Shown: in pieces, positions 4,503 to 57,727 of the stretch
How positions within the stretch are numbered: position 1 is the first letter of the stretch
How the letters are laid out: each line of letters begins with the position of its first letter
Notes under the pieces: model-generated
Told to the model about the DNA's origin: nothing
Database searches by the model: none
The model's input: only the letters and a program-made list of their open reading frames with translations
Assembly (NCBI RefSeq): GCF_010365785.1
Contig: NZ_CP048387.1
Span: 372,001-436,000, forward strand
Reading direction: 5' to 3'
DNA: 64,000 nt
DNA from: Spiroplasma sp. TIUS-1
GTDB lineage: Bacteria > Bacillota_I > Bacilli_A > Mycoplasmatales > Mycoplasmataceae
Program-made: the position numbers and the translations under genes

Positions 4503-6275
4503 ATGACAGCGCATAAAGAAGACATGCTAAACACTAAAAAGAATGGTGTTAGCGGATGATCTAAGTTTCTAACAGTGTTGCAAGAATTAGGTAAGGCGCT
4601 ACAGTTTCCAGTAGCTGTTTTGCCATTTGCTGCAATATTAAATAGATTCGGAGCTTTAGGTATTACATATACGACTGGTGCAGAAGGTGAAATCACTAAT
4701 GCTATCGGATATTGAATATCTTATATTATTCAAAAGCCAGGTTCAGTGGCTTTTGACCAATTACCATTACTATTTGCAATTGGTATTTCATTTGGTCTTG
4801 CAAAAGATCATCGAGGCGAAGTAACCATGGTCGCAGCAATTATGTATTTTATTATAATTTTAATGACAAGTGAACATGGTATACCAGAAATGCTATATGG
4901 TAACGTATTAACAAAAACAGTATACAATGCAGATGGAACTGAAATTATAGGTCAGTATTCATCACTAATGTATGTATTTACAGAAACACAAGTACAAGGC
5001 GTAGCTGTAATTACTGGAGCAACTTACGTACTTAATGTAGGTGTTCTTGGTGGAGTAGTTTCTGGGGTTGTAGCAGCAATGCTATACAACAAATTTAAAG
5101 AAATTAAATTACCAGCAGCATTATCTTTCTTCGGAGGAAGAAGGTTTGTACCAATGATTGGGATTGTAGCAGCAATGGGATTGGTTGCTATATTTGCAAT
5201 ATTGTGACCATGAATACAATTAGTATTAATGTTAATGGGTCAAGCAGTAGCTGACCCAAATAATCCAGCAGTAGCTATTCCAGGAACAGGATTATATGCA
5301 TTTTTAAACAGATTATTATTACCATTTGGATTGCACCAAATTTTAAATACATTCTTCTGATTTCAAATGCCAATTAAGGGTGAAATAATTGCCCCAATTA
5401 CGGGTGAAATAATTCCCCCAATTGATGGTGGAACTTTTACATGAATTAATGGTGATATTAATGCTTTTGCAAAAGGATTGAATACATCAGGATTATTCCA
5501 ATCAGGATATTTCCCAATAATGATGGGTGGAGTTCCAGCTATTGCAGCAGCAATGATCTTTGCTTCTAAAAAAGATAGAAGAACTGAAGTTATGGGATTC
5601 TTAGGTGGAGTGGCATTAGTTTCATTCGTATCAGGAATTACAGAACCAGTAGAATTCTCATTCGTATTCTTATCTCCTGTATTGTTATTAGTACATGCAG
5701 GTATGTCAGCGATATTTATGATGATAACTACAGCAATGCAAATTCAAATTGGATTTGGATTCTCTGCAGGATTTATTGATTATGCAGTATCATTTGCACA
5801 ATCATGAGGATTATCAACATACAAAGGTGGAGCTATGGAAGTAGTATCTAACCCACTAATGATGTTGCCATTAATTGCAGCAGCAGGTGGAGCTTACTTC
5901 GTAGTATTCTCACTATTAATTAGAAAATTAAACATACAAACACCAGGTAGAGAAGAAGATGGAGGTTATGTATCAGCACCAGTTGATATAACTACAACTT
6001 CATCAAAAGATTCGGGATCTAAAGCAGATAAATACGAGACAGCTGCAGCAAAATTTATTGCAGCAATCGGAAGCGATAACCTAGAATCAATCGATAACTG
6101 TGCTACTCGTTTAAGATTAGTTTTAAAAGATAACAAAAATATTGACGTAGCAGCAATTAAAGCTACAGGTGTATCATTTGGTATTAAGCAATTGGGAGAC
6201 CAGGCTTTACAAATTGTAATTGGACCTGATGTTGAACATTATGCTAACGCTATGAAACGAATTAAAAACGTTTAA
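4503..6275 (+). CDS. nagE: PTS transporter subunit IICB, N-acetylglucosamine/glucose type
   Basis: Imports and phosphorylates an amino sugar or glucose using phosphate relayed from HPr and IIA. Of the 590 residues, about 20-480 form the polytopic EIIC domain and the C-terminal ~80 the EIIB domain, with its phospho-Cys533 in NCATRLRLVL. Segments such as GYFPIMM, TEPVEFSFVFLSP and LIRKLNIQTPGREE resemble E. coli NagE more than PtsG, favouring GlcNAc. No IIA domain is fused, so a separate Crr must serve it. A 24-bp in-frame duplication lies at 5371-5418. A secreted chitinase-like gene follows directly. The substrate is inferred; glucose cannot be excluded. Confidence 0.9.
5371..5418 (+). repeat. 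24-bp tandem duplication inside nagE
   Basis: Two adjacent 24-base copies (5371-5394 and 5395-5418) differ at two positions; a third, degenerate start of the unit follows at 5419. They encode PIKGEIIA / PITGEIIP / PIDGG in the EIIC domain. Confidence 0.85.
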
Positions 6276-6380: not shown

Positions 6381-9300
6381 ATGAAAAAATTATTAAGCAT
6401 TTTATCAACAATTACTTTAGTCGGAGCGTCAACAACAACAATAATTGCTTGTTCTCCACAAAATGATATTTTTCCAAGTGGGGAAAATTCATGATGGAAT
6501 AATACTGAAACTGGATTTAATGATTCAAATGTAATAAATAAAATGATGAATAAAGTTTCAAGAAGCAATGAAGGAGATAAAATTTTAACTCAAGATCAAG
6601 GAGAAGGAGTTTCAAATTTTAAGAAAAGTTTAAAGGATAAAAATAATAATGGTCTTTTAAAATCTACTTTAGCAGGTAAAAATAAAAATATTTTAGATGA
6701 CTCTTTGTTAATTAAAAATGCAAAAGACATTAGATTCAAACCATATGCAGATATTGGTATTGTTGAAGACTATGCTGAATATGCATTAAAATGACATAAT
6801 AAATCTGGAGCTTGAAGAAGTGAAGTAATTAAAGAAGCTGAAAAATTAGGTATCGATAATGTTAATTTTAATAATTTGGCAAATATTGTAAATAATAAAG
6901 ATTTAATAAATTTAGACAATGGTGGTGGAATTAATTTGGGTTTCATGCAAAATGCAAGTGATACAGGTGAATTAACACCAATGTGAGATGCAGCACCAAG
7001 TAAAACAACAAATAAATCTGAAGAATGATTTAAAGATAGATTTGATAAGTGATCAAAAGATTCAAATGGTAACATTTCAAAAAATATGACAATTTCATTT
7101 GGACCTTTTGCAAATTCATTTTGACATACTGCATATAATAATGGTTCAACAGCAGAACAATTGGCAGAACAATTAAAAATGATTGGAGAAAATTATAATT
7201 CTAAATCATTTGACTTTTATTTTGCAGCACCTTATTTAAGTGCAAAACAACCTCAATATAAAGAATCACAAAAATTATTAGCATCAGCTCTTAAAATTTT
7301 AATGGAAACAGATGCTGCTGAAAATAATGGTAAAACTACTTGAGATATTAGACTTTCATTAGTTGGATCAAACGTACAAGGATTGGGATTTTCACCATCA
7401 ATGTTAGAAGGTAATGAAGCTGGTTTTGAAGAACATAATGCAGATGAATCATCACCGTTATATGTATTTACAAAATATTTAGGAACTAATTTTAAATTGA
7501 ATTTAGTTGCTGGATATTTAAGTGAAGAAGATTCTGAATTGTATCCAAATAATTTAGAAAAACTTAAAAATAATGAAAATTGAGAATTAAAATTTATCAA
7601 AAATCAAATTCAAGTTTTACGAAATAATTGAATAAAATTATCAAATGTTTTAAATGGTACAGAATTTGAACAAAGTAAATTAAATTGAAATCAAAGTACT
7701 GGTATTGTTAATGAAGAACAACCTCCATTAACAGATGATGAAAAAGATTTTTCAAAGAGAATGATAGTTACTCCTTGAATGGGTGCTCGTGCAGAAAAAG
7801 CGATGTATAACTTCACACCAAAAGATATGGCTGAGTTGAGAGAGTTCTCAATTGAACAAAATATTGGTGAGCTATCAATGTTTTATATAACAAGAGATCA
7901 TGGATCTGAATTCTTATCAAGTTTAACAGAAGATGAAAAAAATAATTTATCAACAACAAACTCAGCTAGATTAGCAGATAAAAATGCATTAGATCAAAAC
8001 ATCAGAAGTGGATCTGGATTTTATGATGAATATTCATATACAAAAGCTTTAAATGGAAAATTATCAAAATCAGATGTTGAAAATTTAAAACATTACGACA
8101 CATTTGAAGAAGCCAAAATAAATGGAATAAAAGGTCTAATTGATTTGGAATCTATAAAAGTAGAATCTGAATTTGGAAAATTTGTTGGTAGTTTAGGTAA
8201 TGATGCTGTTTGAGAAGGACCAGGTAATGGTGGGCCAGGTACAGGAGAAAATGGTGGTAACACAGACCCAGTACCTCCTACAGGTGAACAAGGACCAGCA
8301 CCGGCATCTCCATCATTATACAAAGATAGATTATTAGCAAACCCAGTTCGAGGGAATTCACAAATAACTAAAAAAGTTGCAAAAAATTCTGGAGTATATT
8401 TTTCACCTTACTTAGATGCAGGTCTATGAGAGGGTAATGAAATTGCTGCAATTAAAGGTGCATCTAATTTAGATCATTTGACATTATCATTTGCGCAACA
8501 AATAAACAGTAAACAACCATCAAATCCTTCAGAAGATATGGAAATTTCATTTGCAGGTATTGATAAGGGAAATGAAGGTTATGATTACTGACTAGAAGCT
8601 CAATTAAAAGCAAAAGTATTAGATCCTTTAGTAAAACAAAATCCTGATAATTTAAAAAATATCAAAGTTGCATATGGTGGAGCTACAACAGGTGGATATG
8701 ATCACAAAAATCCATGATCACTTGCTGCCGAATTATATGGAAATGATGCTACTAATAGATTAGAAAAATCATTAGTTGACTTTCAAAATGAAATTAGTGG
8801 TCTATATGGCAAATCAAACATTATGAAATCAATTGATTTTGATATTGAAGGTGAAGCACAAAACAACCATGAAGGTATTACAGTTCTTGCTAAAACATTA
8901 GCACAAATGAAAAAAGCAGATAAATCTTGAGATTTCTCAATAACACTTCCTGTACTACCACAAGGTCTAACAAATGTTGGTTATGGAGTATTGGATATAT
9001 TTGTAAAAGAATATAAAAATGCAGGATTGGATATTAAAGATTTACCAATCACTAACCTAATGTTAATGGATTATGGTGACCCAATATATCTTGAAGCTAT
9101 TAGTAAAAATGAAACAAATTTTGATTTAGCAAAAGCTGCGATTGAAAATACATTTAGAAATATTGAAAACTCAATTAAAGAAAACTTTAATATAGAAGGA
9201 GTTAAACCTTCAAATATTTGAAAATTAATTGGAGCAACTCCAATGATTGGTGTTAACGATACAGTTGCAGGTGTATTCACAGAAGAAGATGCAAAAGAAC

Positions 9301-9506
9301 TTTATAACTATGCTCATACAGTTGGTTTAGGTTACATTGGTATGTGATCTATGAATGATGATCGAGGTAGACAAGGTGATAAAGCAATTAACAAATCTCT
9401 TGTAACTCATGGATTAGCTTACTTAGACGAATATGTTTTTGCTAGTGCATTTAATGGTAATTGAGATTATGTAAAAAAACATACACATGATAAATGATAT
9501 TTATAA
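6381..9506 (+). CDS. Secreted GH18 chitinase-like lipoprotein with duplicated domain
   Basis: Predicted to cleave beta-1,4-GlcNAc polymers outside the cell. The 1041-residue product begins with a lipoprotein signal (MKKLLSILSTITLVGAS, lipobox Cys near residue 24). The C-terminal domain (about 650-1041) has the GH18 motif SIDFDIEG with D819, D821 and catalytic E823. The N-terminal domain (about 110-605) repeats the same layout, but the matching segment reads SFDFYFAA (D278, Y280, A282), so it lacks the acid catalyst. A Pro/Gly-rich linker (about 612-645) joins the halves. It has its own promoter and terminator and follows the NagE-like importer. The fold is inferred from motifs; activity is unproven. 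Confidence 0.85.
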
Positions 9507-56572: not shown

Positions 56573-57727
56573 ATGATTATAAAAAATGCAAATATTGTCT
56601 TAGAAGATAAAATTATAAAAAATGGTTCCATTGAAATAGAAAATAGTTTAATTAAAAATATTTCTGAATCAGTATTAAATGGAGATGAGGTTATTGATGC
56701 AAACGGACAATTTGTTTTGCCGGGATTTATCGATATGCATGGACATGGTGGATATGGTATAGACCACAATGATTTTGAGTTAGATAAATTTGATAATTAT
56801 AGAAAAAAAGTAACTAAAGAGGGTGTAACTTCTTATTTACATTCAACTGTAACAATGTCAAATGAGCAAATTAATAAGTCATTTCCAATTTTTAGTGAGT
56901 TTATGAAAAACCAAACTCCAAATGGTGCAACTTGTTATGGTATGTACATGGAAGGACCTTTTATTTCAAAAGAAAAAAAAGGAGCACATGAGCCTACTTT
57001 GCTACAAAATCCAGATCCAAAAGTATTTGATGCTTATAATAAGTTATCAGGTAATAATATTAAAGTAGTTGTATATGCTCCTGAAAACTCTGTTGGCAAT
57101 TTTACTGAACACCTATCAAAACAAGGAGTAATTCCTTCAACCGGTCATACAACAGTTAATGCAATGCAATTTAAAGAGTTTATAAATAAAGGCTCAAATA
57201 ATGTTACACACTTATTTAATGCTATGACAGGTGTTGACCATTATAATCCAGGATTAGTAGTTGGCGCTATGAACGACAAACGTGTTATGTGTGAGCTAAT
57301 AACTGACGGAATTCATGTTCATCCAGAAACACTAAAAATGGCTTACAACAATATAGGTCCAAACCGTTTGATTATTATTACAGACTCAATGAATGCAAAA
57401 GGGTTACCTGATGGAGACTATTTCTTAGGTCCTTTAGCTGTTATTAAAAAGGGAATGAAAGTTACTTTAAGTGATGGAAAAACATTAGCTGCTGCTGGTG
57501 CTACCTATGATCACAACGTTAGAACGATGGCATCAGCAATTGGTTTAACTACAAATGATTTATCAATATTAATAAAAATGACTTCTATTAATGCTGCAAA
57601 ACACTTAGGTATTTTTGACAAAACTGGAAGCATTACAATAGGGAAAAAGGCAGACTTAGTATTTGTTAATGACAAATTAGAAGTCCAAAAAACAATCGCA
57701 AATGGAAAAGTTGAATTTACAAAATAA
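56573..57727 (+). CDS. nagA: N-acetylglucosamine-6-phosphate deacetylase
   Basis: Converts GlcNAc-6-P to GlcN-6-P and acetate. The 384 residues have the amidohydrolase layout: LPGFIDMHGHGG with H56 and H58, MEGPFISKEKKGAH, STGHTTVNAMQFKEF, THLFNAMTG and ITDSMNAKG with the catalytic Asp, all typical of NagA. AAGGAG lies 6 bases before the ATG. It connects to the NagE-like importer and chitinase-like protein elsewhere in the window; nagB is not seen nearby. The end overlaps the next frame by 26 bases. Confidence 0.96.
   Translation: MIIKNANIVLEDKIIKNGSIEIENSLIKNISESVLNGDEVIDANGQFVLPGFIDMHGHGGYGIDHNDFELDKFDNYRKKVTKEGVTSYLHSTVTMSNEQINKSFPIFSEFMKNQTPNGATCYGMYMEGPFISKEKKGAHEPTLLQNPDPKVFDAYNKLSGNNIKVVVYAPENSVGNFTEHLSKQGVIPSTGHTTVNAMQFKEFINKGSNNVTHLFNAMTGVDHYNPGLVVGAMNDKRVMCELITDGIHVHPETLKMAYNNIGPNRLIIITDSMNAKGLPDGDYFLGPLAVIKKGMKVTLSDGKTLAAAGATYDHNVRTMASAIGLTTNDLSILIKMTSINAAKHLGIFDKTGSITIGKKADLVFVNDKLEVQKTIANGKVEFTK

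What the first reader, a model, noticed from the sequence alone, without database searches (positions are those of the whole stretch)
6900..9506. Internal duplication in the chitinase: inactive N-terminal GH18 copy plus active C-terminal copy
The C-terminal domain has SIDFDIEG (D819, D821, E823). Three landmarks line up in the N-terminal half: SFDFYFAA at 277-284 against the catalytic segment, WDIRLSLVGSNVQGLG against WDFSITLPVLPQGLTN, and TPWMGARAEKAMYNFTP against TPMIGVNDTVAGVFTE. The catalytic Asp and Glu are Tyr280 and Ala282, so the first copy may bind sugar without cutting, or act in attachment.
Basis: partly seen in the sequence, partly recalled or inferred. Interest (0 to 1): 0.6.

Follow-up and report, generated by a model that had tools for sequence, protein, structure and literature searches.

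The report
Chitinase carrying a conserved dead twin
A surface protein of a Spiroplasma-like, wall-less bacterium joins a working-looking chitin-cutting enzyme to a second copy of the same barrel-shaped domain that has lost its catalytic residues yet has been kept by selection in many related species, probably as a part that grips or positions the substrate.

Summary
The gene is 6381-9506 (+), genetic code 4, a 1041-residue lipoprotein. Both halves belong to the Pyrococcus furiosus ChiA AD2 / Streptomyces venezuelae Chi1 branch of GH18. The C-domain keeps D819, D821 and E823. The N-domain profile on its own finds only those chitinases in the PDB (best E 2e-7). Its predicted structure has the eight strands of a TIM barrel and matches 2dsk best (Z 21.7). 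In 25 N-domains from 21 genomes position 280 is always Tyr and 282 is Ala or Ser; in 38 C-domains D-x-D-x-E is always intact. The N-domain is under purifying selection (dN/dS 0.09-0.27), has one origin, and was found only joined to a C-domain, in Spiroplasmataceae plus one oyster Mycoplasma. So it is a conserved pseudo-chitinase module, not a decaying copy. Most likely role: glycan binding and positioning beside an active, membrane-anchored chitinase that feeds GlcNAc to the neighbouring PTS. Binding is inferred, not shown. Internal duplication and fusion of paralogues are not separated (support 79/58). No paper I could search describes this bacterial inactive-active pair.

The parts
6381..9506 (+). 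whole gene: 1041-aa two-barrel chitinase lipoprotein (genetic code 4)
6381..6452 (+). lipoprotein signal peptide, lipobox Cys24
   Evidence: NF038029 LP_plasma, 26.7 bits over cut-off 24, residues 1-24
6696..8198 (+). N-terminal pseudo-GH18 TIM-barrel domain (residues 106-606; strand 1 at 118, strand 8 at 497-502)
7206..7229 (+). SFDFYFAA (276-283): degenerate catalytic strand; Y280 and A282 replace catalytic Asp and Glu
7341..7388 (+). strand 5 landmark WDIRLSLVGSNVQGLG (321-336)
7770..7820 (+). strand 7 landmark TPWMGARAEKAMYNFTP (464-480); R470 and E472 invariant among N-domains
8199..8342 (+). Gly/Pro-rich linker (residues 607-654)
   Evidence: sequence; low pLDDT
8343..9488 (+). C-terminal catalytic GH18 domain, PF-ChiA type (residues 655-1036)
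8829..8852 (+). SIDFDIEG (817-824): intact D-x-D-x-E catalytic motif
8928..8975 (+). strand 5 landmark WDFSITLPVLPQGLTN (850-865)
9237..9284 (+). strand 7 landmark TPMIGVNDTVAGVFTE (953-968)
4503..6275 (+). adjacent PTS EIIBC, best match GlcNAc-specific (NagE-like): likely uptake of the product
   Evidence: TIGR01998 E 6e-119 but below its curated cut-off; linkage seen only in this genome among the loci checked
56573..57727 (+). nagA, GlcNAc-6-phosphate deacetylase
   Evidence: TIGR00221 over cut-off at G000:C1:428573-429709

Best explanation
A membrane-anchored chitinase whose C-terminal PF-ChiA-type GH18 barrel cuts chitin, and whose N-terminal barrel is an anciently inactivated but selectively maintained GH18 copy (pseudo-enzyme). 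Shown by computation: homology, barrel fold, loss of both catalytic acidic residues in every N-domain, purifying selection, single origin, and constant pairing with a C-domain in the same protein. Inferred: the altered but invariant pocket binds a glycan (chitin chain, chito-oligosaccharide or host glycan), so the N-domain works like a chi-lectin or carbohydrate-binding module, holding substrate near the neighbouring active site and holding the cell to it. Released sugar would enter through the adjacent NagE-like PTS and be used by NagA and NagB.
For: C-domain: phmmer to 9buf 6e-21 and 2dsk 2e-10; structure Z 25.5 and 23.1; D-x-D-x-E in 38 of 38. N-domain: PDB profile hits only to PF-ChiA-type chitinases; model with eight strands, best matches 2dsk Z 21.7 and 9buf Z 21.6, above other GH18 at 18.2 or less. 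Y280 in 25 of 25 and A/S at 282 in 25 of 25. N-domains are invariant in and after the strands, where any barrel pocket lies: mean commonest-residue frequency 0.80 after strands against 0.45 before, P 4e-9, like the active C-domain (0.82 against 0.54). dN/dS for N 0.09-0.27, for C 0.04-0.16. Every intact N-domain protein also has a C-domain; N is one clade, 100/100. Tandem copies in three genomes keep near-identical C-domain 3' parts but differ in N, as expected if N sets specificity. NagE-like neighbour, nagA and nagB present. Precedent for inactive GH18 that still bind sugar: PDB title of 4ay1 YKL-39, YKL-40 (PMC11190707), TCLL (PMC3662789).
Against: No binding or activity was measured. A Tyr in place of the catalytic Asp and Phe501 in place of Trp989 may block the -1 subsite, so chitin need not be the ligand. 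Conservation around the pocket would also fit a structural or other role. Structure models rest on four sequences (mean pLDDT 59.5 and 53.7), so side chains and domain packing cannot be read. No GH20 hexosaminidase was found, so the product path is incomplete.
Confidence: 0.55

Rival explanations
1. The N-domain is a scaffold only: it folds against the C-domain or spaces it from the membrane, and its pocket binds nothing.
For: Found only together with the C-domain; the catalytic Asp is replaced by bulky Tyr, which could fill the pocket.
Against: A scaffold would not be expected to keep an invariant pocket face; conservation after strands is as strong as in the active domain. C-type domains occur without any N-domain, so it is not needed for folding.
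Confidence: 0.2
2. The N-domain has a new catalytic activity built from other residues (for example D278, R470, E472, R505, D506).
For: R470, E472, R505 and D506 are invariant among N-domains and lie just after strands 7 and 8.
Against: D278 is Glu in two of 25; the GH18 mechanism needs the missing Glu (established knowledge); nothing in PDB or family libraries suggests another activity.
Confidence: 0.1
3. The N-domain is mainly a host adhesin that recognises a non-chitin ligand, and the chitinase role is secondary.
For: Surface lipoprotein; tandem paralogues differ mostly in N and leader; Spiroplasma chitinases are discussed as host-interaction factors (PMC6716498, PMC3563533).
Against: The linked GlcNAc uptake and catabolism genes fit nutrition.
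Confidence: 0.15

Closest known systems
Pyrococcus furiosus ChiA AD2 (PDB 2dsk, 3a4w, 3a4x) and Streptomyces venezuelae exochitinase 1 (9buf)
   Same: Both domains here belong to this GH18 branch by sequence and predicted fold; the C-domain keeps the catalytic residues.
   Different: Those structures are of single catalytic domains; here an extra inactive copy precedes the active one in a Mollicute lipoprotein.
Chi-lectins / pseudo-chitinases (YKL-39, YKL-40, TCLL)
   Same: GH18 barrel with catalytic residues replaced, retained by selection.
   Different: Those are animal or plant, mostly stand-alone proteins from other GH18 branches; here the pseudo-domain is fused to an active-looking chitinase in bacteria and sugar binding is unproven.
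Arthropod GH18 domains lacking the catalytic Glu (Dm-CHT10, Dappu-CHT3 and others; PMC2685406)
   Same: Arthropod chitinases can have one to five GH18 domains, and some of these domains lack the catalytic glutamate.
   Different: Different GH18 branch and kingdom; no evidence of common origin.
Paenibacillus ChiW (5gzt, 5gzu)
   Same: Bacterial cell-surface chitinase with two GH18 domains (established knowledge); the full-length model aligns across both barrels.
   Different: Its two catalytic domains are regarded as active (own knowledge); different GH18 branch.
Oyster Mollicutes MAG chitinase (PMC8125052)
   Same: Putative Mollicute chitinase noted as homologous to 2DSK.

Membership tests
GH18 chitinase, PF-ChiA branch: C-domain | sequence homology to solved members | tested here: met
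   9buf 6e-21, 2dsk 2e-10; profile 4e-29 and 3e-14
GH18 chitinase, PF-ChiA branch: C-domain | (beta/alpha)8 barrel | tested here: met
   eight strands in the model; Z 25.5 to 9buf_A
GH18 chitinase, PF-ChiA branch: C-domain | D-x-D-x-E catalytic motif | tested here: met
   D819, D821, E823; 38 of 38 homologues
GH18 chitinase, PF-ChiA branch: C-domain | hydrolyses chitin | not testable with these tools
   needs an assay
GH18 chitinase, PF-ChiA branch: C-domain | match to the general Pfam GH18 model PF00704 (a detection aid, not a biochemical criterion) | tested here: inconclusive
   no PF00704 match in the protein or genome; likely a limit of that model for this divergent branch, since solved chitinases match directly
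Active GH18 enzyme: N-domain | D-x-D-x-E catalytic motif | tested here: not met
   D278-x-Y280-x-A282; 25 of 25 lack both catalytic residues
Pseudo-GH18 / chi-lectin-like: N-domain | GH18 barrel fold and homology | tested here: met
Pseudo-GH18 / chi-lectin-like: N-domain | catalytic residues lost but gene maintained | tested here: met
Pseudo-GH18 / chi-lectin-like: N-domain | binds chitin or other glycan | not testable with these tools
   needs a binding assay
Internal duplication within the protein | N and C nearer to each other than to outside GH18 domains | tested here: inconclusive
   grouping 79/58, long stem of 3.3

The most novel reading that the evidence does not exclude
Mollicutes invented a bacterial chi-lectin by duplicating a PF-ChiA-type chitinase domain, losing catalysis in the first copy and fixing the pair, with the dead copy now acting as a lineage-specific glycan-recognition module that diversifies between tandem paralogues while their catalytic domains are kept alike.
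Probability: 0.35. Interest if true: 0.55.

Novelty: new variant of a known kind. Interest (0 to 1): 0.42.

Why it matters
About 500 residues of a chitinase counted among the putative virulence or host-interaction genes of Spiroplasma have no Pfam annotation; they turn out to be a conserved dead chitinase barrel. That gives a testable hypothesis for how wall-less insect symbionts hold on to chitin or host glycans, and adds a bacterial case to the known evolution of sugar-binding proteins from chitinases.

Tried and rejected
Chance similarity of short motifs: rejected by profile and PDB searches. Decaying pseudogene half: rejected by dN/dS and invariant pocket, although two other genomes (G003, G475) do carry N-domains broken into pieces. 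Stop codons in the frame: explained by code 4. N-domain homologues on viral contigs or plasmids: none found; C-type homologues occur on plasmids of Lactococcus, Streptomyces and others. First genome-contig scan with the single protein found nothing. Foldseek alone ranked N-domain matches poorly (best E 1.4e-3); the second look by VIA-align gave the clear order. Conserved NagE linkage: seen only in this genome among the loci checked. I did not fetch the Yersinia plasmid hits as outgroups, to stay clear of possible toxin-complex chitinases, and used other genera instead.

Full report
WHAT IS THERE. The window comes from a Mollicute genome (811,521 bases, one contig; its family includes Mesoplasma seiffertii) using genetic code 4. 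The gene is 6381-9506 (+), 1041 residues with 21 TGA tryptophans. It begins with a lipoprotein signal, then a variable leader, an N-terminal domain (about 106-606), a Gly/Pro-rich linker and a C-terminal domain (about 655-1036). Pfam has no significant hit for either domain.

THE OBSERVATION. Profile-profile alignment of 15 N-domains against 15 C-domains pairs the same landmarks (E 2.1e-7, 93.6%, 323 columns). Searching the PDB with the N profile alone gives only P. furiosus chitinase AD2 (E 2e-7 to 1e-6) and S. venezuelae exochitinase 1 (1.6e-4). The C-domain finds the same chains far more strongly.

STRUCTURE. The N-domain model (four-sequence alignment, pLDDT 59.5, pTM 0.69) has strands at model residues 13-19, 79-83, 131-135, 171-176, 217-223, 267-272, 356-362 and 392-397 with helices between them: a TIM barrel. 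Its best structural matches are 2dsk (Z 21.7, 268 residues, 3.5 A), 9buf (21.6), 3a4x and 3a4w, with other GH18 enzymes from 18.2 down. In the full-length model both halves have eight strands and the C-domain matches 9buf (Z 25.5) and 2dsk (23.1) first. Confidence is moderate, so the fold can be trusted but side chains and domain packing cannot.

CATALYTIC RESIDUES. On an alignment of all homologues fetched, position 280 is Tyr in 25 of 25 N-domains and 282 is Ala (23) or Ser (2); 278 is Asp in 23 and Glu in 2. P284 and Y285 are invariant where present, and R470, E472, R505, D506, F501 and Y502 are invariant in all rows that reach them. The C-domains keep D-x-D-x-E in 38 of 38. F501 stands where the C-domain has the invariant W989 (alignment).

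SELECTION. dN/dS between close pairs is 0.09-0.27 in N and 0.04-0.16 in C. In N, residues in the seven positions after strands (where a barrel pocket lies) are far more conserved than those before strands (0.80 against 0.45, P 4e-9), as in the active C-domain (0.82 against 0.54, P 2e-8). The N-domain is therefore maintained, pocket included.

DISTRIBUTION AND ORIGIN. In 320 genomes of the order, 24 Spiroplasmataceae genomes and one oyster Mycoplasma (ATU-Cv-703) have the N-domain; one more genome (G328) has only a weak hit, which lies inside a stand-alone C-type domain. In 392 genomes across the phylum it occurs only in Spiroplasmataceae. Every intact N-domain protein examined also has a C-domain. 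C-type domains also occur without N: alone, or as a C-C tandem of 902 aa with both motifs intact. N-domains form one clade (100/100) on a long stem of 3.3 changes per site; N plus Mollicute C against outside sequences has 79/58 support. One ancient origin is clear; duplication in place or fusion of paralogues is not decided.

TANDEM PARALOGUES. In G176, G068 and G251 two such genes lie side by side. Within a genome, the 3' two thirds of the C-domain are 89-98% identical in DNA while the N-domain is 71-88%, as if the C-domain were homogenised by gene conversion and the N-domain allowed to differ.

FUNCTION. The gene directly follows a PTS permease nearest to the GlcNAc type; nagA (56573-57727) and nagB are in the genome; no GH20 hexosaminidase was found. 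A surface chitinase feeding GlcNAc metabolism fits. For the N-domain I favour glycan binding, by analogy with pseudo-chitinases that keep binding after losing catalysis (YKL-39, title of 4ay1; YKL-40, PMC11190707; TCLL, which binds GlcNAc but lacks a chitin groove, PMC3662789). This is inference; scaffold, adhesin and new-activity rivals remain.

KNOWN OR NEW. Spiroplasma chitinase genes are known and discussed as host-interaction factors (PMC6716498, PMC3563533, PMC5874924), and a Mollicute chitinase homologous to 2DSK was noted in oysters (PMC8125052). Arthropod GH18 domains lacking the Glu, within a group of chitinases that can hold several such domains, are known (PMC2685406). I found no paper describing the inactive N-terminal barrel, but the library holds only part of the literature. 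New variant of a known kind.

Noticed in passing
L126, L127, L128 (genomes G251, G176, G068): Tandem two-barrel chitinase genes with near-identical C-domains but diverged N-domains, suggesting gene conversion limited to the catalytic half.
   Followed up: partly
L097 (G244): A 902-aa protein with two C-type GH18 domains in tandem, both with D-x-D-x-E intact.
   Followed up: partly
L098, L099, L100: Other paralogues join a C-type domain to 230-410 residues of unrelated leader; one is 1273 aa with a further ~450 residues after the domain.
   Followed up: no
L111 (G003), L112 (G475): The N-domain is broken by stops or frameshifts into pieces while the C-domain is largely open.
   Followed up: no
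window 4503-6275 and 56573-57727: NagE-like PTS gene directly upstream of the chitinase and nagA about 47 kb downstream.
   Followed up: partly
window 8298-9488: The C-domain gives no PF00704 match but a sub-threshold match to DUF5696 (E 2.6e-4), hinting at a distant barrel relationship.
   Followed up: no
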